Source: a virus. From it: a DNA stretch of 54,502 nt. The notes under the pieces are model-generated. The model did not search any database. It was given only the letters and a program-made list of their open reading frames with translations, and had not been told where the DNA came from. Made by a program: the position numbers and the translations under genes. The DNA lies in IMG/VR virus record IMGVR_UViG_3300030329_002480, positions 1 to 54,502 of that record; one strand, given 5' to 3'. Every line of letters begins with the position of its first letter. Position 1 is the stretch's first letter. Shown one piece after another: positions 1 to 44,827 of this stretch.

Positions 1-98
1 GTTTGAGATGCAGTTGATGGAAGCGGCAGCACGTAAACGTGCGTGGCTTGTAGAAACAATCCATGACTTACTCACTAGCGGACAGAAAGTGACCGTGT
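1..98. repeat. Terminal direct repeat, left copy
   Basis: These 98 bases are identical to 54404-54501; the next base differs (t here, c at the last base of the window). Joining the copies restores one open helicase frame, so this is the overlap of a circular or permuted genome assembly. The sequence alone cannot say whether it is an assembly overlap or a real short terminal repeat. Confidence 0.95.
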
Positions 99-3165: not shown

Positions 3166-3360
3166 ATGAACTGTTGGCATTGTAAGACTGAACTAATCTG
3201 GGGTGGCGACCACGACGCGGAAGAGGATACCGAGGTCTTCACTATGGTCACCAACCTATCGTGCCCAAAGTGCAACTCACTTGTGTTGGTGTACTCTGGC
3301 GTAAAGGAGAATCTACCACCCGCCCGTATCGAACTAGGTGGGGATAACGATGGCGTTTGA
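3166..3360 (+). CDS. Small zinc-ribbon protein, 64 aa
   Basis: The ATG at 3166 is chosen because an upstream in-frame TTG would place the start inside the terminator hairpin. The protein carries two cysteine knuckles, CWHC near residue 3 and CPKC near residue 34, that would bind one zinc. The remainder is acidic. Its last 11 bases overlap the start of the DNA polymerase gene at 3350, suggesting coupled translation. Function is unknown; similar ribbons in replication operons can be transcription or replication accessory factors. Confidence 0.75.
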   Translation: MNCWHCKTELIWGGDHDAEEDTEVFTMVTNLSCPKCNSLVLVYSGVKENLPPARIELGGDNDGV

Positions 3361-5821
3361 TAAAGCCAAGTGTGAGCAGTGCCCACTTAAAAAGCACTGG
3401 CAAAAGAAGAAGTGCTGGAGCCCCGTAGACTTCGAGCAGAGAGCGTCGGGGGACGGAGGCATACTCATCCTAGGGGAAGGACCGACAAAGACCGACATGA
3501 GCCTTGGGAGGCCATTCTCGGATATGTACGGGGCCGACCTACTAGATGCACTAAAGACCCTAGGGCTACGTCGAGAGGACGTGTCGTGGGGGCACGTTAT
3601 CGGATGCCGTTGGCCAAACGATGACCCAAAGACATACATTGCAAGGCTTCGCGCGTTGAACCGACGTCGAGCAAAGAAGTGGGGGAAGGGGCCTTTGCTT
3701 TCCCCCATCGAGGCGTGTCGTCAGCATACAGAGCACCATATGCAAAAGAGCGAAGCCATCCTCTCCTTGGGCTCGCTTGCGACCAAGGCAGTCTTTGGTA
3801 ACAACGTGAAGCTCGATGGTGTTCGTGGCGCACCTTCCTTTGTAGGGAAGACCAAGGTCGTACCATCGTACACACCGCAAGTTGTGAGGAAGAACCCTAG
3901 GTTTCGGGATGTGTTTCTTAGAGACTTGGCCAAGATGCTACGTCACTACAACGATGAGCTCCAATGGAAAGACCCAGAGGTTATCTACAATCCGACTTAT
4001 GAAGTAGCTAAGGAGTTCTTTGCGTCCGTCAAAGAGCAGGGCGACATACTGGTGTACGACGTTGAGACCGATGGTATCGACGCCCTGAGTACTGACCTGC
4101 GTTGCGTGGGTATCGGAACAAAAGACCGCGCACTCGTTATCGGATTTGTTAGCATCGACGGTGTCAGTCGCTTCTACTCTAAGGAAGACGAAGCACAGAT
4201 GAAGGACCTGTTGCGAGAGGTCTTTACCGACGAGACCTTCTTGAAGGGCGGACATAACGCTGGATACTTTGACCGGCTGGTTATCGAGCAACACCTAGGG
4301 GTCACGCCCCGTCCGCTGGTGGATAGCATACTTCTCCATAAGCTAGCGGCATCCGAACACCGACACAACCTAGGGTTCATCGGCTCGTATGAGCTCGACC
4401 TACCCGCGTGGAAGGCAGACCATACAGGGGTGGAGGCTAAGACCGACGAGGAGTTGCATGCGTACTGCGCGACGGACGTAGCGGTCACCGGACGTATCAT
4501 GCTCCCTGTTCGCCATCAGGCAGAGATGAGGCAACAACTCCACCTCTACTCCTTTGATGAGAAGATTCAGAACATCTGCGCGGGCATGCGTAGGATGGGC
4601 ATGAGGATTGACGAGGGTCGTCGGCTCGCGCACGAACAGGAGCAAGCCGAGTTGGTGGCACGACACCGCAAGGTGATGGAGAAGATGCACCCAGAGGTAC
4701 ATCCCAACTCGACTGCCCAGCTCAGGGAACTTCTCTTTACCGAGTGGGGGCTCCCCCCCTCTTCGTTTACACCTACGGGGGAGATCTCCGTTAACGCCGA
4801 TGCCTTACGTACACTCGCCACATCCCCCCTGCTTAGCGACAAACAACGTAAGTACGTGAAGTCTCTCCGCTTCTACCGCAGAGGGGAAAAGCTCCTGTCT
4901 ACTTACTTGCGTAAGTTAGCCCCCGGTGCTGGGCTGGTCCGTGACGGGTACGTCTACCCCAACTGGAACTCCCACGGCACTGTTACCGGTCGGTTGTCTA
5001 GCTCTGGGCCCAACTTCCAGAACATCCCTTACGCTCTGCGAGACATGTTTATCCCCCCGGAAGGGTGCGTGTTTGTTGGTGCTGACTATGACCAGTTAGA
5101 GCTTCGATACTGCTCTGGTCTGGCAGGCGCGGCACACTACCTCGATGCGTTTGAGAAACAGCTTATTGACCCACACAACCTGACCGGAGACCTCATGTTT
5201 GGGGAGAAGTTCTGGCAGGTGGAAGGAGCCCCGGAGACTAAGATGGGCAAGGGCACGGGGCAGTTTAAGCGGATGCGAAACCTCGCCAAAGCTATCTGCT
5301 TCGCTAGTCTCTACGGTGCGAGCGCACCCAAGATTCATGAGCTCGTGACCAGCACCGAGGACAATGATGGGAACCTCATCTACGCCCATTACACCCTCCA
5401 GCAAATCCGCGTCCTGCATCGCAGGTGGAAGCGGCAAGCACCGGAGTTCGCGAGGTGGTGGGCTAAGACGTTAAGATTTTGTAAAGAGAACGGGTATGTG
5501 GCGGAGTCGGTGTTAGGCAGGCGTCGTTATTTCCACAAGGAGGACTACAACGCTGTACTCAACTTCCCGGTGCAAGCCGGGGCGTTCAACGTGGTGGCGT
5601 TGTCGATGATTGATTTGGTAGAGAACCACCTGCCGTTCGACTTCAAGAACAAGATTGGCTTAGTGAATCAGCTTCATGATGCCGTCTTGTTCAGCGTACC
5701 GGTGGCGCAAGCCGAGGACGTAAAACAACTTGTTACTGAAACACTCACGAGACGGGTGGATGGTCTGCCCGTCACATTTACCGCAGAAGCAGAGATTGCA
5801 GAATCTTGGAGGGAAGCATGA
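3350..5821 (+). CDS. Family A DNA polymerase with N-terminal UDG-like iron-sulfur domain
   Basis: The gene encodes 823 residues from the ATG at 3350; a GTG 12 nt upstream is less likely. Residues 1-200 resemble family 4 uracil-DNA glycosylases: CEQCPL (C8, C11), GEGPTKTD (43-50), GRPF (53-56), an IGC (C86) and EAC (C123) giving the four cluster cysteines, and a YTP (174-176) where the family has a His-Pro. A 3'-5' exonuclease domain follows, with DVET (237-240), a GHNAGYFD segment and YCATD. The polymerase domain has motif A DYDQLELR (from D579), motif B with K647, F651 and YG (655-656), and motif C reading HDA (776-778) instead of the usual HDE. This is the replicative polymerase of the phage. 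Confidence 0.95.
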   Translation: MAFDKAKCEQCPLKKHWQKKKCWSPVDFEQRASGDGGILILGEGPTKTDMSLGRPFSDMYGADLLDALKTLGLRREDVSWGHVIGCRWPNDDPKTYIARLRALNRRRAKKWGKGPLLSPIEACRQHTEHHMQKSEAILSLGSLATKAVFGNNVKLDGVRGAPSFVGKTKVVPSYTPQVVRKNPRFRDVFLRDLAKMLRHYNDELQWKDPEVIYNPTYEVAKEFFASVKEQGDILVYDVETDGIDALSTDLRCVGIGTKDRALVIGFVSIDGVSRFYSKEDEAQMKDLLREVFTDETFLKGGHNAGYFDRLVIEQHLGVTPRPLVDSILLHKLAASEHRHNLGFIGSYELDLPAWKADHTGVEAKTDEELHAYCATDVAVTGRIMLPVRHQAEMRQQLHLYSFDEKIQNICAGMRRMGMRIDEGRRLAHEQEQAELVARHRKVMEKMHPEVHPNSTAQLRELLFTEWGLPPSSFTPTGEISVNADALRTLATSPLLSDKQRKYVKSLRFYRRGEKLLSTYLRKLAPGAGLVRDGYVYPNWNSHGTVTGRLSSSGPNFQNIPYALRDMFIPPEGCVFVGADYDQLELRYCSGLAGAAHYLDAFEKQLIDPHNLTGDLMFGEKFWQVEGAPETKMGKGTGQFKRMRNLAKAICFASLYGASAPKIHELVTSTEDNDGNLIYAHYTLQQIRVLHRRWKRQAPEFARWWAKTLRFCKENGYVAESVLGRRRYFHKEDYNAVLNFPVQAGAFNVVALSMIDLVENHLPFDFKNKIGLVNQLHDAVLFSVPVAQAEDVKQLVTETLTRRVDGLPVTFTAEAEIAESWREA

Positions 5822-11049: not shown

Positions 11050-14000
11050 CAGTCCTCCGTAGGTACGATCGGGGTCTTCGCCTGACGCTCCAGATCGTTC
11101 TCCAGTCTCTTCAATCTATCACTAACATCATCCTCTTTCCAATAACGCTCACTATCCCCATTGTAAAACAATACCTTGCCGGTATTGAGCAATGCGCCGA
11201 GAGCCTCCAGACGAGCCCGCGCTGGGCCCGAGTCTACGGCAAGAGCGCGGATCTCACTGGGTGCCATGCCGGGGAATGCGAGGCTAAGCATAAGGCGGAA
11301 ACGATGATATTCGGTTTTAGGAATCTTGGCGATCGCGGCACCGACCGGTCCCGCCGGATAGCGGATTCGCTTTGTCCGTGTGTCCTGTGGGTCTTGTGTC
11401 AGAACCGCGAGATCTGGCGCACCAAGCATCCCAAGGAGCTCTACAAACTCCATGTCCCCGTTCCGCATCCTGAGCCCGTATTCGGATGCGGGGACGTCAC
11501 TGACACCCACTAGCTCTTGGAAGAAGTCTTCAAACACGTCCGAGTATACGGGAGCTAGGAACTGGTCGATTGTTGAATCAATCAAAGACTCAAACGCTTT
11601 CTCCGGGTTCGAGGATAGTGGAATAACCTTCCCTTCTGGGTCCACAATGTTCCCTCCCGCAACGGCAAGGGCTGAGAGACTGGCTGCGATGTCAAGCATC
11701 CCAAGCATGTACTCGGTTGTGGTGGCTTTCGGAAAAATGCGGGCAAAGTGTGTTCGGACATAGCCCCCTTTTGCCATCTCCGTGACTGCGTTTTCTGGCA
11801 TTTCACCTAGAGCAAGAAGGGGATACTCCTCAAGGTACTTAGGCATCTCCCGCATCGACGCATACTTGGCTTGCTCTTCTTCGGTCAGCTCAGTGTACGG
11901 GTCCGTCATCGCTGCGGGGTACTGGGTCATGAGCCGACTAACTACCTCAAACCGTTGTAACTGAGTCGCGCCCCTAGCATAGCGGCTCATGTACTCCTTT
12001 ACGCCGACGTCGGAGGCCTCAAAGAACATCCGAAACACCTGCGCCATAGCGTTCTTCGAGAGTGTGTAGAACAGGACGTAACGGCCAATAAAGGACATCT
12101 CATGCTTTCCAACTGAATGCGACCAGTCGTACAGTGTATTCGACAACTCCCGGAAGGCCTCCTGCTCCGTCAGCCCCCGGTTGATGCGGGCGTCGGCGTA
12201 CATGAGAAGGCGCTGACGACGAGTAACTTCACGGATTTTCATCTCCATGATGTTCTGCATGTAGCCGAGATCTTGACCTGCACGCGAAAGGGCTCCGAAG
12301 ACACCCGGATTTTTCTGGCGTTCAACCATAAGGGTGCGCCGAATCGCAGCGGAGAAGTCTTGGATGCGGATGTTCTCCCCGATTCCTGCGCCAATCGCTT
12401 CGGCGTAAAACTCGGCGTAAGTCATTTTGGTGCCGTCTTTAAGTGTCAGCACATCCTCACTGGCCGTTAAGATTTTATCCAACGCACCGTTAAACATCGC
12501 AGAAAAAGCTGTAGGGAGCCCCTCTTTGCCGGGGGGTAGCTGTGCGATCGTCCTAAAGTAGGCGTTCTGTAGCGCCTTTCCGTACACAGGGACGTAAGCG
12601 AGTGAGCCCATGAAGGTCAGATTCGCGGCCCTAGCTGGTCCCACGGTGATCCACATCTGGGAAAAGTCACCAAACAACTGGTTCATAAAGTACGCAGGTC
12701 GCGGGATAACGAGCCCGGTGAGGATGTGTGTCTTGAACCACCGAAGAAACTTCTCGTACAGCCTTAGACCACTGGAGTGCAGCATTGTGGATGCCGCGTC
12801 CTCACTGATCGCTTCGTCGAGTTCTTTCTGAATCTTGGTAAGGCTCTCGTTGAGATCGTTCAAGATGCTCTGAGGCACCATCAACACGTTGCCCTTTGAA
12901 TCGACCGATGCGGCAACCATGCGTTGGTACGCAGTACGGGTAGCATGTAGCTCATCCGTCTGGCCTTTCCGGCCAATGCTGGTCAAGCTACCCGTCCCCC
13001 AGATACTAAATCCGTCCAGTGCATCCAGAAGAGACAACCGGATATCGCGATGAAGCACCTCGTCAAGAGGGACCACAAGAAGCTCGCCCTTTTGTCCCCC
13101 CGCTGGGCTGGACAAGTAGACGACGTTCGCCTTCTTATCGATCTTATTGATGCGGTACGCCGACTTTCCGAGCGCATCCATACCTAAGTCTTCCAGCTTC
13201 GGCAAACGCACAAACGGCTTACCTGCACCGCGTCCCGCAGCAGGGACTGCGCCTGCTTGAGGATAAGGTGTTTGTCGGAGTTTAGCGACATCAGGGAAAG
13301 GACCGGCTCGACTAACGCTAGGTAGTTTTGTGAGGTCTACATGCGGTCCCAACAACAACGCGGCCTGATGCTCCGCGACATAGCTAAGCATGTTCTTGAC
13401 CTCATCATTGATTCCCGGAATCAGTTGCTTGAAGAAGTCCATCTGCTCGAACCACAGGGGTGTCTGCCTACTTTCATACCGGATCAAGCTTAAGAACTTC
13501 TGAACATCCGGGTTCTCAAAAGGCACCGTGTGGATTTCCGCAAAGCCCTCCCGATTCAGTACTTGGTCCCAAAAGCCACGGTTGAAGATATACGAGACAC
13601 GATTAGCCATTCGCCGCGCTCTAGCGGGATCCATACCTAGCTTTTTGGTTAGCTCCTCCCCCCGCTTGAGAAGAGTCGAGTTACCCATATGAATGTAGGG
13701 ACGAAGCAGTTCCTTCATCTCAAGCTGATGTGCTTTTGCTTTTTCCACGATGGCCATAGATGCCGCATCACCAGTTTCTAAGGCACGAGCTCTATTGGTC
13801 ACCACGTTGTGCAGTGCCTCATGAATGATGATCTGCGCGTTAAAATAGCGGGGGTCAAAGTTCATGTGGTCTGGGCCCGAGTGGGCGTTGTTGTACCTCC
13901 GCTGGAAGTAGATGGGGTTTGTGTCGGAGGCGTAAGGGACAAGGGCTTCGGCCATTCGCCGGTAGTTCTCCCCGCGCGCGTTTTGTGAGAGCCATTGTAA

Positions 14001-33799: not shown

Positions 33800-33958
33800 T
33801 TACTCCTGCTCCTCAACGCGAGGGGTAATCTCGTCGTCCGCCCGTTGAAAAGTCTCCCCTAACGGAGTACCAAACTCTTCCTGCTGCTTCTGACGCTTCT
33901 TGATCTCAGCAAGGCGCTTTTGTGCGCGAATCATAGGATTAAACTTTGGTGCTTCCAT
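33800..33958 (-). CDS. Small charged protein, 52 aa
   Basis: The ATG overlaps the large terminase stop (TAATG), and the stop lies 4 nt before the next gene. The protein is a single charged helix (RAQKRLAEIKKRQKQQEEF) with an acidic tail. The tight stop-start coupling on both sides supports a real gene. Function unknown. Confidence 0.6.
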   Translation of the reverse strand: MEAPKFNPMIRAQKRLAEIKKRQKQQEEFGTPLGETFQRADDEITPRVEEQE

Positions 33959-35658
33959 TATCGCCTCCTATACTTGCTTCGTCGCCAGCGGCGTTGGTTG
34001 AGAGTTTTGGTCGTGTTTTTGCGGTGTGCCTCGACTTGATTGTACGTCATGTCTCGGAACAAAAGCACATTTCCCAGACCCTCTGGGGCAGTGTTTTTCT
34101 TATAACGCCTTGGTGCCCGTCTTGCAGCAAGACATGCCAGTTGTAACGCCGAAATCTTATCCCAGTGATGACGATCTCTTCGACGACCGGGTTTTCCCGA
34201 ATGAAGCATCTCCGCTGTAGCCGACCGCTCAACTTGCTTATCCTCACGGTACGAGCCCAGTTGGCCCACAGTATCTTCGTCGTACAGAATCAGCTCGTCT
34301 TTCAATGCATCTTGTAGGTAAGACAGCATCATAGAAACAGATTTAGCAGTCGCTGCCACACCGGGTCTGTATGCCTTCTCGTAATAGAGATTCGGATAGC
34401 CCGCGTCCTCAAGCAAAGCCAAAGTAGCAACACCCACACCGTTACTTTCCACGGCCACAAGGGCGTTATTATACCTTCTTCCCACATCTGAGATTTTCTT
34501 TGCGAAAAGAACAGGGTCTGTGATTCCTCCAAAGGTAGCAACTTGGGTCCATTCTCCATCATACACCTTCAAGACTTGAAAAGAAGCGTGGTCTCGCGCA
34601 GCATAACCAGCGGGGTCAACCCCCATGACGTATACGGCTCCGGCTTCGGGTTTCTCATACTCCATATAGGGGGCATTCCACGGAACTAGCATCTTCTCTT
34701 GATGTCGCTTTAGTAGCGAAGAGTGGAACACAGACCCAATGTTGGAGATCCAACAACTGATGTCGTCATACGGGTAGTAGACCTTAAATAGGTCTGGATT
34801 GCGCCGGATTTCGGCGTCAGTCTCTAGCATTAAACGACGAAATGCAAGATTTTCTTTTTTTAATCCGAGATGTCCGTATCTTTCTAAAAGACGAATCTCT
34901 TCATTCTCCAATGCCAAGTTATCCGGCCATTTACGCTGGTTTAGCTGCCCATCCCAAAAAGGAAAGAATGCATACACCCACCTACCGAGCCCCAGTTTTG
35001 CGTCCCTACACTGGTCTCTCCACCACTCGGTAGATGGCTCGATGATCGGAGCCGGGGTAGATTCTAATAAAACAAGAGAGTGATCCCTGTTAATCATGGA
35101 GGGATAAATCATTGAAAACTGATGACCAGCATTCCGCCAGTACGGCAACTCAGACCCGTGAAACGAGTCAGGAGACTGTCCGATACCCACCGCTCCAGAT
35201 TCACCTGACAGAACACGCATTTTCCCACCATGCTGAAACGTCAACTGACGCACCTCACGGTTGGGAACCGTCTTTGCTCTTACGGGTTCTGGCCACTTGC
35301 TATGCGTTAAGTGGATACGACGATGCAAATACTCGGCCCGGTCGCGATTATCTGCGATACAGACGTGATCGTGTCCGGGGGTGTACGCAGAGCGAACATA
35401 CCCACACAACTCAGACGTAAGGCTCTTACCCCCCTGACGGTAGCCCAAGAGAGTCAGCCATTTTGTTTGGCCAAGGTCTGTCTGCGGAGGATTTGAGTAA
35501 TAAGACACAACCGTCTCTTGCAGGCGCTTGGTGATCGCAAACGGATCGTAAGCATGCTCCTGACCCGTCTTCTGATCGATAATCTTCGCGTAGGCACGGA
35601 GACTGATCGCCGGGTCACGGAGAGCCTCTAAGGCTTCGTCCTCAAGAGGTAAGCTCAT
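33958..35658 (-). CDS. terL: Terminase large subunit
   Basis: The start at 35658 (MSLPLED) is chosen because it overlaps the previous stop (TAATG); a GTG 24 nt upstream is the alternative. The 566-residue protein has a terminase P-loop RQGGKS (74-79), followed by a Walker B-like strand LVLLEST. The nuclease domain shows VMGVDPAG near residue 345, VAVESNGVG, and a final HHWDKISA segment carrying the last acidic residue. It would cut concatemers and pump DNA through the portal encoded nearby. The packaging type cannot be read from sequence alone. Confidence 0.9.
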   Translation of the reverse strand: MSLPLEDEALEALRDPAISLRAYAKIIDQKTGQEHAYDPFAITKRLQETVVSYYSNPPQTDLGQTKWLTLLGYRQGGKSLTSELCGYVRSAYTPGHDHVCIADNRDRAEYLHRRIHLTHSKWPEPVRAKTVPNREVRQLTFQHGGKMRVLSGESGAVGIGQSPDSFHGSELPYWRNAGHQFSMIYPSMINRDHSLVLLESTPAPIIEPSTEWWRDQCRDAKLGLGRWVYAFFPFWDGQLNQRKWPDNLALENEEIRLLERYGHLGLKKENLAFRRLMLETDAEIRRNPDLFKVYYPYDDISCWISNIGSVFHSSLLKRHQEKMLVPWNAPYMEYEKPEAGAVYVMGVDPAGYAARDHASFQVLKVYDGEWTQVATFGGITDPVLFAKKISDVGRRYNNALVAVESNGVGVATLALLEDAGYPNLYYEKAYRPGVAATAKSVSMMLSYLQDALKDELILYDEDTVGQLGSYREDKQVERSATAEMLHSGKPGRRRDRHHWDKISALQLACLAARRAPRRYKKNTAPEGLGNVLLFRDMTYNQVEAHRKNTTKTLNQRRWRRSKYRRR

Positions 35659-36563
35659 TATCTCAAGTACTCCGAAACCCACGTAACTGGAGCAGACAAA
35701 ACTGGTTGCAGTTCGACGCCCGGAGAGAACATAGTGACGTAATCACCGGATTGAACCTTAGGTTTAGATTGTCCGGGGCGGATTACGGGGTGCCAGTTAC
35801 TCGGAGGGATGTACCTTCCGGTTAGCTTTTCTAGTTGTTTTGCGGCATGCTCATCCCCTTCAACAAGAATGCGCCACATGAGGCCACCGGGGACAACCCC
35901 CGTGGCACCGGGAACACTGCCACTTTTTGGATAAGCGTATGCTTTGGGAGCAATATCAATCAGCCTGTCCCCTTTGTCGATCACATGAACAGTTTGTCCG
36001 GGGTCTAGCCCTCGTGACATCGGGTGCGACCACTTCATCTTCTGTCCGAGTTGTGGGGTCCAGTTCGCGGCCCATTCAGGTGCCTTCTGTGTCGCTTCGG
36101 AAGTAGCCGTCTTCGCCACCGCTTTAGTGGCACCCTCTGCCGCTTCGTCTCCGAAACCAAGAGCGCGCTTAGCTGCTTGCCACGATCTGCCGAGCCTCCC
36201 AAACATAGCTCCCCCCGTTGCCTCTTGTGCAATAGTGGAGATTGGATCTGGAGCTAACTGCTTACCTGCGGTAGCTTCAATGTTACCCAACTGAGGCGCG
36301 CCAAACGTGGAGCGGTACGCCCTCTGCGCGGCTTGCTGCGCCCTGTTGGGGGTCGCGTAAATCTCACCATATTGTTCCGCCACGGATGGTTCCGCTACAG
36401 ATGATTCCGGTGCAGCAGCTTCCGCCATCGCCGCTTGCTGCTTCGCCTGCGAAGATAGCAGCGCATCATACGCCTCTCGGGAAGTGTCTTGTACACCAAA
36501 GGTATTGTCTACCCCCTGTCGTTGAGTAGCCTTCCAGCGTTCGTAGTCGTCCTCGTCAGCCAT
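35658..36563 (-). CDS. Hypothetical protein, 301 aa
   Basis: The start at 36563 lies in a TGATG overlap with the previous gene, and a GTG one codon upstream is possible. The N-terminal half is Ala-rich and helical (QAKQQAAMAEAAA). The C-terminal third (about 170-300) is beta-rich with HVIDKGDRLIDIAPKAYAY and ends WVSEYLR. No family recognised. It directly precedes terL, so it could be involved in packaging or be a virion protein. Confidence 0.72.
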   Translation of the reverse strand: MADEDDYERWKATQRQGVDNTFGVQDTSREAYDALLSSQAKQQAAMAEAAAPESSVAEPSVAEQYGEIYATPNRAQQAAQRAYRSTFGAPQLGNIEATAGKQLAPDPISTIAQEATGGAMFGRLGRSWQAAKRALGFGDEAAEGATKAVAKTATSEATQKAPEWAANWTPQLGQKMKWSHPMSRGLDPGQTVHVIDKGDRLIDIAPKAYAYPKSGSVPGATGVVPGGLMWRILVEGDEHAAKQLEKLTGRYIPPSNWHPVIRPGQSKPKVQSGDYVTMFSPGVELQPVLSAPVTWVSEYLR

Positions 36564-40761: not shown

Positions 40762-41521
40762 GAGGTTCCTCGGTGCGATAAAGTCTACAGCCCTTTGTAA
40801 GTCTCATACGCTTTGGAGAGCCATAAATCAAGTAAGAAAGGTAAGGTGGTGAGCCAGTGAGCCGCTTTGCAAGGTCGGCATCCGCGTAAAAAGGGTTGGA
40901 CTGAAGTGCTGCCAGAAACCGCATGCGCTTCCTCATAGGTACGTCCGTGAGAAACGGAGGATAAACACAGCGTCGGAAATCGGTCCCAGAGGCCCAGAGA
41001 ATATATTCTGGGATGTCCTGTAGGCCTTCGATGCCCAAGTACATAGTTCGGAGAATCGAGCTCTCTGGGAGCCTGTAGCCTTCTGCTATCTGAGGCACGG
41101 TCAGCCCCATGCAGTACAGCAACACCATAAGGAACGCACACATCTGCCGGTCGTTGCGAGCGTAACGGCTTGACATATCGACGTTTGCAATGTCGTGAGG
41201 TGTAGGGATGAGCCGATACTTAAAGGCGGGATAGATTTCTCTAGGCCACTCTGTAGGGGACCGTAAGCAGGCCTCAGACCTTGCCCAGTTGTTAAGCAAA
41301 GGGGTTTTTCTCACCCAATCATAGACACCTGAGTTTGGTCCTGAGGTGGTCTCGAACGTCCACGAGAAGCTTTTCTTGCGGATGTACATGATTGTCGAAA
41401 GGAACGGGTTCCACGATTTGGTTGTCGTCAAATATGGGGTGTAGAGCGTCCTAAGAGCCAGCACATGCGGGCTCTTATTCCGGTCCTTTACCCTAGGTAG
41501 CCTCTGCGTGGGTTCACGCAT
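40733..41521 (-). CDS. Hypothetical helix-turn-helix protein, 262 aa
   Basis: The ATG at 41521 is preferred over an in-frame TTG two codons upstream. It overlaps the primase-helicase stop by 8 nt. A segment MGLTVPQIAEGYRLPESSILRTMYLGIEGL near residues 135-165 has the spacing of a sigma-region-4-like or response-regulator helix-turn-helix. A second LAKRLTGSPPYLSYLIYG near residue 220 is similar. The N-terminal 100 residues are basic and aromatic (SFSWTFETTSG). It may be a transcription factor for late genes or a DNA-binding packaging factor. No family recognised. Confidence 0.6.
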   Translation of the reverse strand: MREPTQRLPRVKDRNKSPHVLALRTLYTPYLTTTKSWNPFLSTIMYIRKKSFSWTFETTSGPNSGVYDWVRKTPLLNNWARSEACLRSPTEWPREIYPAFKYRLIPTPHDIANVDMSSRYARNDRQMCAFLMVLLYCMGLTVPQIAEGYRLPESSILRTMYLGIEGLQDIPEYILWASGTDFRRCVYPPFLTDVPMRKRMRFLAALQSNPFYADADLAKRLTGSPPYLSYLIYGSPKRMRLTKGCRLYRTEEPHVTKKQIEQ

Positions 41522-43991
41522 CCGCAATCCTTAGACTCATAAATCCGGGCTTCTGGGCCCGCTCAACGCGAAGTCCGATACCCACCCATGCGCGGATAAC
41601 CTTGCCCCCGACACGTACAGAGCGTGTCTCGAAGTCCCGCTCCTTCAACTGACGGTTGAATAGCCGGTAGTTCTGTGGCTTTTGGCGCAGGTCTTCGCAC
41701 CAATCCGCGTAAGCAAGGTAGATATCCTTCTGTGATACAGAGTGTTGGGGGCCAATCAGGCAATGTTCGCCCATAAACTCGGCCAACACGTCCATCTCTT
41801 CCCGATACTCGTCCGTTGCTAGCGTCACCACCGCAGGTGGGCGCAGACCGTCACGCTGCCACTCCAAGCAACCCTCGACTAGGCGACGAAGAATGCCGGG
41901 AGCCTCCTCTTTTAGCTTATCAAGAAAGAATGGGTCTTTCTTATCGGCGGGAATACGGCGGTTCCACGGGATACGCATGACTCGCCGCCAGATACCTTCG
42001 TCGTTACCCTTGATGATAGGACGATGGTTGGCTGCGATGCAGAGTTTGTGCGTTGGCATGAACTCATAGAAGTCCTGACGCATCTTCCGGGCACGAATGG
42101 GGTCACTACCGGTGAGCTGCTTGATAAGCGACTCAGCAAACGGCTTGCCTTTCTCGACCTCGGCGTTTGCCACGAACCTCGCACCCTGCAAGTCGGCCAC
42201 CTCGGTAGGATGCGACTCATTCTTGCGAGCAAGCAGCAATCCGGGTGCTCCTTGGATAGCGTAGTCACCTAGGACATGCATGATCATGAGAAGCGCGGTG
42301 GTCTTACCATTGCTGCCGGTTCCCTCCATGAAGAGCAGCACTTGTTCTGTGACCAAACCGGTAAGGCAATAGCCAAAATAGCGGTGGATGAATGAGATCA
42401 CCTCCTCGTCCCCATGCATAGCAAAATCAAGAAAACTGTCCCATGTCGGGCATTTAGCAGTTGGATCGTAGACAATCGGGCTGTGCTTCGTCATGTAATC
42501 TGTACGATCGTGTCCTTGGAGCTGACCTGTCCGAAGGTTGATAGTGCCGTTTGCAACATTCAAAAGCCAAGGGTCTGCATCCATCCTGTCAGCCTTGATG
42601 GCAACCTCTGCCTCGGTGGACGCCAAGCTAATCATAGAGTTAATAGCTCGTGAGCTTTCACTACGGAGGGCATGTCGGCGCAGAGCACTGCGCTGTTTTT
42701 TATTCGCAGATGCGGCAGCTTCATCGAAGATAGAGGCAACTACCATTTTCGCTTTGCGATGGACCCCACCATCTAGATCTCTCTCCCAATGGGAGTCAGT
42801 GTACGTGTACCAAGACCCATGCGTTGGGCAATAAAGGAGTTCATTTTGAAAAAGTCTTATCAACCGCTTCGCGTTCCCCAAGTCCGTCAAGTTAGGCGAA
42901 TCCGCCGTAGACGCGGCCAAGGGCTGACGGCTAGAGCTTGGATTAAATGGATCGTCCGCGAGCTCTTGGAGCTTCTGCCATCCGATGTGCTTCCCATCCT
43001 CGTCCTTCTGCTTCCCTTCGCAGTTCTCGTGGAGGCATCCCGCTGCAATCCCGCCATCGTTGAACTGGAGGATATACGCACTCCTGTCCGTGTGTTCTGA
43101 GTTCCACGGACAAATATCAAATACCCAGCGGCGTCCTTTGCCTTGCCATGGTATAGGGTCGCCCAGATCTGGGAAGTTCTTTTTGATCCACTTCTCAAGA
43201 TCGTCGAAGACGTCTGAGGCGAGAGAAATAAGTTTTTTCTTGTCCTCCTCTTCCTCCTTAGAACCATCCGATATGATGCCCGTAAGCTGCTGCATTGAAA
43301 CGGGTACCAGATCTTCAGGCACCTTGAGGAGCTTGGCTGGCCTCCACGGCCTTTCTTTCCCCCCGTGTCCCTTTCTTGGCAAAGTACCGTACACCTTCCA
43401 GATGCGGGACGGGTTGAATACGAGGCGGTCTACCTCTGCTCCGTCGGTGCTGAACTTATCAGACAATGCTTCGAGGCAAAGGCGGATTGTCGTAGGGTCA
43501 GCCTCCTCAACTCGGTACATCATGTGGTAGCCGTTACCTGAATCACCGAAGATGGGGTCAGGCCAGCCTTGTTCCTTCAGATGGTCGTACACTGCGTCAC
43601 ATACGTTCTTGGCTTCCACCTTTTCCAGCGCAGTTGCCGACTTACCGGAGGGGCGCTTGGGATCAATGTCCACGAGCAGCCACCGAATCTCCTCGATGTC
43701 CTTGTCCTTAGTAGATTTACCTCTAGCACCCAGCGTTAGCGTGTGCAGATGGGGAGTTGCCTTCCCCGGACGCACGGGATTGGGGGTAAAGTAGACACCC
43801 TTGGCCCCTTGGTCCGATAATGTGGCCGCAGCCTCAGCTAAGATGCGGACATCGTTAAAGAATCCGCTATATGTGCGACGAATCCCGTCTTGGCCCGGAA
43901 CACTCAGGGCTCGAAGCTCTACATACTGACCTTCCTCCAAGATTTGCCGGAATGCCTTCTCAATCTCCTCGATACAGGCTTTGCTTGCCAT
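41514..43991 (-). CDS. Primase-helicase (AEP primase + D5/SF3 helicase), 825 aa
   Basis: The N-terminal 230 residues have archaeo-eukaryotic primase features: WLLVDIDPKRP (aspartates at 108 and 110), GNGYHMMYRV and NPSRIWKVYGTLPRKG. A cysteine/histidine pair region (CPWNSEH then CLHENCEG, about 295-330) may be a zinc site. A D5-type linker and an SF3 helicase domain follow, with Walker A GTGSNGKT (557-564), a motif B region ARFVANAEVEKG and a motif C-like LCIAANHRP (about 645). The protein would prime and unwind DNA at the origin, and the repeat array at 44247-44584 lies just upstream. It works beside the rightward DNA polymerase. Confidence 0.92.
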   Translation of the reverse strand: MASKACIEEIEKAFRQILEEGQYVELRALSVPGQDGIRRTYSGFFNDVRILAEAAATLSDQGAKGVYFTPNPVRPGKATPHLHTLTLGARGKSTKDKDIEEIRWLLVDIDPKRPSGKSATALEKVEAKNVCDAVYDHLKEQGWPDPIFGDSGNGYHMMYRVEEADPTTIRLCLEALSDKFSTDGAEVDRLVFNPSRIWKVYGTLPRKGHGGKERPWRPAKLLKVPEDLVPVSMQQLTGIISDGSKEEEEDKKKLISLASDVFDDLEKWIKKNFPDLGDPIPWQGKGRRWVFDICPWNSEHTDRSAYILQFNDGGIAAGCLHENCEGKQKDEDGKHIGWQKLQELADDPFNPSSSRQPLAASTADSPNLTDLGNAKRLIRLFQNELLYCPTHGSWYTYTDSHWERDLDGGVHRKAKMVVASIFDEAAASANKKQRSALRRHALRSESSRAINSMISLASTEAEVAIKADRMDADPWLLNVANGTINLRTGQLQGHDRTDYMTKHSPIVYDPTAKCPTWDSFLDFAMHGDEEVISFIHRYFGYCLTGLVTEQVLLFMEGTGSNGKTTALLMIMHVLGDYAIQGAPGLLLARKNESHPTEVADLQGARFVANAEVEKGKPFAESLIKQLTGSDPIRARKMRQDFYEFMPTHKLCIAANHRPIIKGNDEGIWRRVMRIPWNRRIPADKKDPFFLDKLKEEAPGILRRLVEGCLEWQRDGLRPPAVVTLATDEYREEMDVLAEFMGEHCLIGPQHSVSQKDIYLAYADWCEDLRQKPQNYRLFNRQLKERDFETRSVRVGGKVIRAWVGIGLRVERAQKPGFMSLRIADA

Positions 43992-44000
43992 AGTTCCCTC

Positions 44001-44225
44001 CTAGTTAAATAGATCTAGTTGAAGATGTGACTCGTCATGCGGATCGAACACGTCATCTCCACGCAGAAGCTGTTCTAACGCATACGGAGGGATACGCATA
44101 ACACCTCCAATACGGTAGGCGCGGAGCTCACCGCGCTTTATCATACGTTGAACCGTCCTTTTGCTCACATTCAGAAATCTCGCGACGTCTGTAATCGTGT
44201 GCATATGCCCTTCTAGTGTTCCCAT
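44001..44225 (-). CDS. Excisionase-type helix-turn-helix regulator, 74 aa
   Basis: The ATG at 44225 has GGAGGGA immediately upstream, stronger than an internal ATG at 44204. The protein has the MerR/excisionase-type HTH_17 layout: ITDVARFLNVSKRTVQRMIKRG followed by LRAYRIGGVMRIP and a wing. The C-terminal 25 residues are acidic. Such proteins bind short direct or inverted DNA repeats. Its own upstream region is packed with TGTAACA repeats, which are obvious candidate sites. No integrase is present, so it is more likely a regulator or origin factor than an excisionase. Confidence 0.8.
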   Translation of the reverse strand: MGTLEGHMHTITDVARFLNVSKRTVQRMIKRGELRAYRIGGVMRIPPYALEQLLRGDDVFDPHDESHLQLDLFN

Positions 44226-44273
44226 ATTCCCTCCTTCGCGACAGATGGTAACAAACGAGACAGGATATGCAAG

Positions 44274-44289
44274 CCCCGGTATGTCGGGG
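44274..44289 (-). promoter_or_regulatory. ACCCC-N-GGGG element upstream of the HTH/primase operon
   Basis: On the leftward strand the sequence is CCCCGACATACCGGGG, an inverted repeat of five bases (CCCCG/CGGGG) preceded by CA. A TTGCATAT segment follows. It is about 50 nt upstream of the 44225 start. It is the most divergent of five related elements and is included because of shape and position. Confidence 0.5.
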
Positions 44290-44306
44290 TGCCGTGTAAC
44301 AGAAGG

Positions 44307-44335
44307 TGTAACAAACGTAACTGAAGTTTGTTACA
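44307..44335. repeat. Perfect 10-bp inverted repeat inside the heptamer array
   Basis: TGTAACAAAC at 44307-44316 and GTTTGTTACA at 44326-44335 are perfect reverse complements with a 9-nt spacer that itself contains GTAAC. It looks like a dimer binding site composed of two of the array heptamers. Confidence 0.8.
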
Positions 44336-44422
44336 GCCATAACGTAGGTTGGAAGGGGCATACCCCAAAGTGTAACAGTGTAACAAGTTTTTCAGTATAA
44401 CGGCGGAACAGAAAAACGGGGG

Positions 44423-44444
44423 AGTTTCGTGTTTTTACGAAACT
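44423..44444. repeat. Perfect 8-bp stem-loop in the control region
   Basis: AGTTTCGT (44423-44430) pairs exactly with ACGAAACT (44437-44444) around a GTTTTT loop. An A/T-rich TGTGTATATA follows at 44451-44460, which could melt easily. It may be an origin hairpin or an operator. Confidence 0.6.
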
Positions 44445-44827
44445 AGAGAATGTGTATATAGAGGTTACTTGATACCTTGTTACATTGTTACACTGTTACA
44501 CACTAACGATATTAATGGTTCCCCCTGCCTTTTCGAGAAGGCCCCCTGTAACAAACTGAAAATGGACTTGTTACATCTGTTACACCAGCTTCTAACGGCA
44601 CTATCAGCAAGGGCTGGCCCTTTCGCGCAGCGTTTCCCCCACCAATCTTGACCAAACTGGATAAGTTAGTGGCTTGATTTTTCTAAAAACTCTGAGTTCA
44701 TTTTCGCGAACTTAATGAAACAGGCCTCCAAAAAGCCTTAAAGGGGGGCAAAAATGCCTATCATGTTGAGGGCACATACCGCCGGAGGCGAGCCGCCCGC
44801 ATTTCCGGGGCTGCCTCATGCGCGCAC

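What the first reader, a model, noticed from the sequence alone, without database searches (positions are those of the whole stretch)
44295..44584. Eleven TGTAACA/TGTTACA heptamers in a gene-free region: candidate origin or operator array
The array has an 8-bp period in part (44478, 44486, 44494) and a perfect 10-bp inverted repeat (44307-44335). It is next to an HTH_17 protein gene and a primase-helicase gene. This fits a replication origin with iterons, or a repressor operator.
Basis: partly seen in the sequence, partly recalled or inferred. Interest (0 to 1): 0.78.

Follow-up and report, generated by a model that had tools for sequence, protein, structure and literature searches.

The report
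Phage replication origin with switchable codeword
The repeated 7-letter words are very probably the start site for copying this bacterial virus's DNA; close relatives keep the same site layout but use different words, apparently matched to a small loop of the virus's own helicase.

Summary
The array is real: 11 exact TGTAACA/TGTTACA in 44295-44584, the strongest word cluster in the 54.5-kb phage genome. It lies upstream of an HTH_17 gene and a D5-type primase-helicase gene. All 30 relatives whose upstream DNA is held have an array at the same place, but with a different word in most clades. Site order, strand and spacing persist: 10 of the window's 11 sites fit the maps of relatives using other words. 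The map is a dyad of two half-arrays around an AT-richer gap. P4's ori1 matches one half, and its crr resembles the other. The primase C-terminus is predicted to fold like RFX DNA-binding domains and P4's origin-binding domain. Words track its wing, not the HTH_17 protein. In Firmicutes prophages one wing-tip residue predicts one base in 74 of 74 unique cases. Best reading: a P4/SaPI-type iteron origin, read by the primase-helicase, with fast-switching specificity. Binding and origin activity remain untested.

The parts
44295..44584 (.). Iteron array: 11 exact TGTAACA/TGTTACA words in a dyad arrangement; proposed replication origin
44478..44584 (.). Half-array on the side away from the primase operon: 44478-, 44486-, 44494-, 44547+, 44569-, 44578-; proposed loading module for one helicase hexamer
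   Evidence: mirror of the other half
44386..44477 (.). AT-richer spacer between the half-arrays (AT 0.62 against 0.464 for the window; the half-arrays themselves are 0.58-0.60); proposed melting region
44295..44385 (.). Half-array on the side of the primase operon: 44295+, 44307+, 44329-, 44371+, 44379+
44226..44294 (-). Leader of the HTH_17-primase operon; promoter-like by eye (TTGCAT at 44267-44272, TTACCA at 44246-44251); TGTTAC kept in relatives whose array word differs
   Evidence: sequence; promoter not tested
44001..44225 (-). HTH_17 protein (74 aa), conserved between array and primase gene; C-terminus QLDLF at 44007-44021 resembles a beta-clamp-binding motif
41514..43991 (-). D5_N-type primase-helicase (825 aa), proposed self-loading initiator
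41517..41795 (-). C-terminal winged-helix domain (residues 733-825), predicted RFX/P4 origin-binding fold; proposed reader of the array word
41586..41636 (-). Wing hairpin of that domain (residues 786-802), the segment whose changes track word changes

Best explanation
The array is the phage's replication origin, of the P4/SaPI kind. The D5-type primase-helicase encoded next door binds each word through its C-terminal RFX-like winged helix, mainly through the wing. Two groups of sites in mirrored order seat two hexamers facing each other across the AT-richer spacer, which melts so that replication can run both ways. Related phages keep the site map but change word and wing together, so each origin answers to its own initiator. 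Shown by computation: the array, the conserved map, the word switches, the domain fold prediction and the wing-word association. Inferred: binding, hexamer loading, melting and bidirectional start. The HTH_17 protein is probably an accessory factor or operon regulator, perhaps touching the host sliding clamp.
For: Array confirmed. All 30 relatives with upstream DNA held carry a repeated word there, with a conserved dyad map. P4's annotated type-1 repeats fit the map, and the same scan recovers them as P4's top clusters. The domain's best structural matches are RFX5 (Z 10.4), RFX1 (9.8) and the P4 origin-binding domain (8.3). Word-wing partial correlation given the helicase core is 0.478, p 0.0002, against 0.18 and 0.12 (not significant) for HTH_17 parts. 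In Firmicutes the wing-tip residue predicts the base after TAAC in 74 of 74 unique sequences, with at least 14 simultaneous changes on the helicase-core tree, and the residue sits in the wing loop of a model. RFX1 reads DNA with its wing in the major groove (PMC4333399, passages). SaPI Rep and SCCmec Cch2 bind downstream iterons through C-terminal domains (PMC7581432, passages).
Against: No binding, replication or read-depth data. Cumulative GC skew has its minimum at 49918, not at the array. The match to P4's half-map was p<=0.05 for 11 of 23 arrays with both halves and 6 of 23 with one half; arrays such as phi105 (L014) and L012 do not fit by exact words. In Firmicutes the array lies directly 3' of the wing codons, so co-transfer could explain co-change there. 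The podovirus words were aligned by hand, and L022 and L031 were left out because their sense was unclear. The spacer's AT excess in the window over its own half-arrays is small (0.62 against 0.58-0.60).
Confidence: 0.85

Rival explanations
1. The array is an operator or nucleation site for the adjacent HTH_17 protein, which controls the operon or acts as the origin-binding protein itself.
For: The HTH_17 gene is directly downstream of the array in relatives and is conserved there; HTH_17/excisionase-type proteins can bind repeats (general knowledge).
Against: Window, L022, L023 and L025 share the recognition core SKRTVQRM but have different words. Partial word-HTH_17 correlations are 0.18 (p 0.077) and 0.12 (p 0.16). 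Arrays occur in Firmicutes loci where the HTH_17 family is found in 1 of 85. The promoter-like leader lies between array and gene, not under the words.
Confidence: 0.08
2. Origin, but both proteins bind it: the primase reads the words and HTH_17 binds the leader or bridges to the host clamp.
For: The QLDLF-like C-terminus: LF within the last 6 residues in 22 of 28 unique HTH_17 proteins, no LF elsewhere in them. The plasmid initiator TrfA binds the clamp through a motif whose LF is needed (PMC4980987, passages). A fixed TGTTAC stands in leaders of relatives with different array words.
Against: The clamp-motif consensus itself is recalled. The phage has its own DNA polymerase A, so use of the host clamp is not given. 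L024, L025, L029, L045, L046 and L047 lack the terminal LF.
Confidence: 0.35
3. The array is another cis site, such as a packaging or partition site, and its place near the primase gene is incidental.
For: Repeat arrays of this size also occur at packaging and partition sites (general knowledge).
Against: Site maps and words track the primase across phages and prophages; the terminase gene is about 9 kb away at 33958-35682.
Confidence: 0.03

Closest known systems
Satellite phage P4 origin (ori1 plus crr, alpha protein)
   Same: Short iterons in both orientations; primase-helicase with a C-terminal winged helix (1ka8 Z 8.3). The site map of ori1 (0+ 10+ 21+ 43- 86+ 96+) resembles one half of the dyad, and crr (0- 9- 52+ 70+ 84-) resembles the other, with one site reversed.
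   Different: In P4 ori1 and crr are about 4.5 kb apart and the word is GGTGAACAG; here both halves are contiguous, the word is TGTAACA, and an HTH_17 gene stands between array and primase gene.
SaPI Rep / SCCmec Cch2 origins
   Same: D5_N/Primase_Cterm-type helicase; C-terminal domain binds iterons by its gene; [quoted passage not shown]
   Different: The SaPI/SCC origin lies 3' of the rep gene; here it lies 5' of HTH_17-primase. Site maps of SaPI origins were not compared.
RFX transcription factors (X-box readers)
   Same: Best fold match of the domain (RFX5 Z 10.4, RFX1 9.8); X-box half RGYAAC (PMC2375033, passages) shares GTAAC with the window word and AGTAAC with Firmicutes words.
   Different: Eukaryotic transcription factors, not helicases; about 14-20% identity over the domain.
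Plasmid TrfA/RK2 iteron origin
   Same: Iterons, AT-rich part, initiator with a clamp-binding motif (PMC4980987, passages).
   Different: TrfA is not a helicase; here the clamp-like motif is on a separate HTH_17 protein.

Membership tests
P4/D5-type iteron origin with self-loading initiator | D5_N helicase encoded beside the array | tested here: met
   PF08706 E 2.1e-33; array 0.3 kb upstream of the primase gene
P4/D5-type iteron origin with self-loading initiator | C-terminal P4/RFX-type winged helix in the initiator | tested here: met
   Model of residues 733-825 against 1ka8 Z 8.3, 1dp7 9.8, 8zjr 10.4; prediction, pLDDT 83
P4/D5-type iteron origin with self-loading initiator | Site map like P4 ori1/crr | tested here: met
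   Window, two halves: 9 sites matched, null mean 5.99, p 0.005; half alone 5 of 6, p 0.095
P4/D5-type iteron origin with self-loading initiator | AT-rich unwinding segment | tested here: inconclusive
   Spacer AT 0.62 against 0.464 genome but 0.58-0.60 in the half-arrays; the longest spacer is AT-richer than its locus in 24 of 25 arrays listed (L031 the exception)
P4/D5-type iteron origin with self-loading initiator | Initiator binds the iterons specifically | not testable with these tools
   Only indirect: word-wing association
P4/D5-type iteron origin with self-loading initiator | Replication starts there | not testable with these tools
   No read depth; GC skew minimum at 49918 does not support or exclude it, as gene direction confounds it
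Operator of HTH_17 protein | Word follows the HTH_17 recognition surface | tested here: not met
   Partial correlations not significant; near-identical helices with different words
Operator of HTH_17 protein | Sites overlap the promoter of the controlled gene | tested here: inconclusive
   The promoter-like leader at 44246-44272 is outside the array, judged by eye only
Beta-clamp-binding protein (for the HTH_17 protein) | QL[SD]LF-like motif | tested here: met
   QLDLF in the window, LF in 22 of 28 C-termini; consensus recalled; interaction not tested

The most novel reading that the evidence does not exclude
D5-type phage origins share one ancestral dyad map of two mirrored half-arrays, one per helicase hexamer. 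P4's puzzling ori1 and crr are the two halves of that dyad moved apart. Origin identity is set by a compact wing code in the initiator (in Firmicutes: second wing-tip residue K, G or Y/F gives C, T or A after TAAC) that phages rewrite together with the array, giving insulated replicons, and the GTAAC core is shared with the X-box of human RFX factors.
Probability: 0.45. Interest if true: 0.78.

Novelty: new variant of a known kind. Interest (0 to 1): 0.62.

Why it matters
It turns one odd repeat into a natural series of matched initiator-origin pairs. Close relatives (terminase 68-84% identical where found) use different origin words, so the protein-DNA recognition rule of a whole helicase class, the meaning of P4's split origin, and how phages keep their replication private can each be tested with simple binding and mini-replicon assays.

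Tried and rejected
Rejected or fruitless: the HTH_17 protein alone as query found no relatives in viral contigs. DNA similarity of the array against phages found only chance matches of 24-31 bases, and that of L084's array none. GC skew as an origin marker failed. L006, L015, L016 and L017 gave no clear array beside the primase in the first k-mer scan; L018's array lies about 2 kb away. The P4 half-map did not fit G004, L023, L028, L050, L014, L012, L013, L065 or L064 significantly, among others. The genome-contig search failed for lack of conserved columns and was not repeated. Partition and packaging readings were considered and dropped for lack of support. Dropped before counts: 10 of the 40 loci L022-L061 had no upstream DNA (contig ends) and were not; L022, L031 and L058 were not among the 21 loci; thirteen loci were not matched by the domain pattern; L143, L156, L157 and L084 were removed beforehand. 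In one search four of 38 unique wing segments failed the majority cut (L116, L140, L148, L152); one search used the commonest base without that cut. In one search the leader printed for L022 and L023 was a wrong stretch inside the gene and was not used.

Papers: passages read in PMC7581432, PMC7145576, PMC4980987, PMC2375033, PMC4333399 and PMC2533330 by term search; others seen only in search listings. I found no description of the shared map or the wing code in the listings, an open-access subset only. Ubeda 2007 and the P4 papers were not read.

Full report
OBSERVATION. The window is a whole virus record of 54502 bases; its first 98 bases recur at 54404-54501, so it looks complete. Gene content is that of a tailed, podovirus-like phage (portal, terminase, internal virion protein) with a DNA polymerase A and a D5_N primase-helicase. 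In a scan of every 6- to 9-mer the array is the strongest local word cluster of the genome (log10 expected number -16.6). The same scan on phage P4 returns P4's annotated type-1 origin repeats as its top clusters, a positive control.

RELATIVES SWITCH THE WORD. The first relatives (L003, L004; primase 58% identical) have no TGTAACA at all, but 12 copies of TGTCTAC/GTAGACA in the same place. A third, G004 (HTH_17 60% identical), has 10 copies of TGCTACC. A wider search gave 80 loci. Of the 40 loci L022-L061, 30 hold the upstream DNA, and all 30 have a repeated word there (at least 4 exact copies; L022 and L025 are weakest), upstream of the primase gene and, where an ORF was called, a small HTH gene. 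Words include TGTAACA, TGCTACC, TGTCTACA, ACTACAAA, CAGCCACAAA, TGTAGACGA, TGTAACCA, GGTTACAA, CTTGACA, TTCTACG, TTACTAC, TGACTAC and TGTAACCT. These are close relatives: the terminase is 68-84% identical in 8 of the 10 records tested, no match being found in the other two, which may be fragments.

THE MAP PERSISTS. In the primase gene's direction the window reads 0+ 9+ 31- 84+ 92+ 100+ | 199- 207- 249+ 271- 283- (TGTAACA sense). L030 (GGTTACAA) reads 0+ 10+ 20+ 41- 98+ 106+ | 207- 216- 261+ 273- 282-, and L037 (TGTCTAC) 0+ 11+ 22+ 47- 88+ 97+ 106+ | 217- 226- 267+ 282- 292-. Ten of the window's 11 sites match each of those maps within 8 bp and on the right strand; 2000 random placements reached at most 7 and 8. 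For L041 it is 9, L084 9, L033 7, L045 7, L088 7 (p 0.0005-0.0115). So the arrangement, two mirrored groups around a spacer of about 100 bp, is conserved while the letters change. The longest spacer is AT-richer than its locus in 24 of the 25 arrays listed (L031 is the exception); in the window itself the spacer is only slightly AT-richer than the half-arrays.

P4. The P4 record annotates type-1 repeats at ori and crr. In one sense they read 0+ 10+ 21+ 43- 86+ 96+ at ori, which is one half of the phage dyad, and 0- 9- 52+ 70+ 84- at crr, which resembles the other half except for the sign of one site. Using the P4 ori half as an outside template on 23 arrays chosen by me, both halves together match better than random placements at p<=0.05 in 11 of 23 (window p 0.005), one half alone in 6 of 23 (window p 0.095); Fisher's chi-square for two halves is 143.9 on 46 degrees of freedom, but the loci share ancestry.

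WHO READS THE WORD. AlphaFold2 gives the primase C-terminus (residues 733-825) a winged-helix fold, pLDDT 83. Among solved structures the best matches are RFX5 (8zjr, Z 10.4), RFX1 bound to its X-box (1dp7, Z 9.8) and the P4 origin-binding domain (1ka8, Z 8.3); RFX5 and RFX1 also appear, weakly (E 0.034 and 0.96), by sequence profile. RFX1 reads the major groove with its wing (PMC4333399, PMC2533330, passages). In the podovirus family the recognition helix of the primase domain hardly varies among the window's nearest relatives, while the wing does. Over 21 loci, with hand-aligned words, the partial Mantel correlation with word distance, given helicase-core distance, is 0.478 for the wing (p 0.0002), 0.270 for the helix H3 (p 0.001), 0.180 for the HTH_17 helix (p 0.077) and 0.117 for the HTH_17 wing (p 0.16). 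There the array is about 2.7 kb from the wing codons, so simple co-transfer is a weaker explanation.

A WING CODE IN FIRMICUTES. Bacillus-type prophages and phages (phi105 kin) carry the array directly 3' of the primase gene. The HTH_17 family is found in only 1 of 85 such loci (L157, within a 264-residue open frame). Wing tips KG[AS]KN go with AGTAACCC, NG[AST]KN with TTAACCC, KGTGN with AGTAACT, and GN[YF]N with AGTAACA. Over 74 unique sequences, from 82 loci, the second wing-tip residue and the commonest base after TAAC agree in all: K-C 47, G-T 20, Y-A 6, F-A 1. On the helicase-core tree both change at least 14 times, always together. G-T recurs in divergent backgrounds (L064, with another recognition helix; the L149/L155 group, with AATAACT), and K-C in L016. 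The residue after N[KR] also relates to the base before TAAC, less strictly. In the model of L088 these residues form the wing loop, positions 60-64. Caveat: adjacency allows wing and array to move as one block; the recurrence across backgrounds argues for function but does not prove it.

MECHANISM. Most likely the primase-helicase binds the words with its wing, the two groups of about six sites guide assembly of two facing hexamers, and the spacer opens. Two-hexamer binding at iterons is reported for SaPI Rep, and C-terminal-domain binding for SaPI Rep and Cch2 (PMC7581432, passages). The shared GTAAC with the RFX X-box half RGYAAC (PMC2375033, passages) fits a common interface but may be coincidence.

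THE HTH_17 PROTEIN. It is kept between array and primase gene in the relatives where it could be called. Its last residues are QLDLF-like: LF within the last six in 22 of 28 unique proteins, no LF elsewhere in them, chance about 0.018 each by composition (the proteins are related). TrfA needs such an LF to bind the clamp (PMC4980987, passages). A TGTTAC element stays in the operon leader of the window and of the six relatives whose leader was printed, even where the array word differs, as read by eye. I propose a helper or regulator role; this is inference.

AGAINST. There is no wet evidence. GC skew does not point to the array. Several arrays do not match P4's map by exact words. The clamp idea rests on a motif.

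NOVELTY. Iteron origins read by self-loading helicases are known (P4, SaPI). What appears new, within ten searches of an open-access library (listed in Tried and rejected), is the conserved map across word switches, its match to P4's two separate sites, and the wing-base association.

Noticed in passing
window 1-98 and 54404-54501: 98-base direct repeat of the record's ends, although the record is listed as linear: probably a complete, circularly closed or terminally redundant genome.
   Followed up: partly
window 44007-44021: HTH_17 protein ends in QLDLF-N, like a beta-clamp-binding motif; LF near the C-terminus in 22 of 28 unique relatives.
   Followed up: partly
window 44246-44272: Operon leader keeps TGTTAC in relatives whose array word has changed; may be the -10 region or a fixed binding site of the HTH_17 protein.
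   Followed up: no
window 3338-5821: DNA polymerase A whose N-terminal part matches the uracil-DNA glycosylase family (PF03167, residues 41-197, E 1.5e-9) ahead of the exonuclease domain: an unusual fusion.
   Followed up: no
window 12498-12585: ARAGORN calls a tRNA-Ala inside and opposite to the 2443-aa ORF; possibly spurious.
   Followed up: no
window 49900-50250: Cumulative GC skew minimum at 49918 coincides with the switch of gene direction.
   Followed up: partly
L047 1491-1881: Separate array of 9 ACACGTCAA/TTGACGTGT and ACGTGTCAA/TTGACACGT words, about 0.3 kb beyond the origin array.
   Followed up: no
L018 7783-8114: AcaML1 has six GGTTTCCA words in an intergenic gap about 2 kb from its D5 primase gene.
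   Followed up: no
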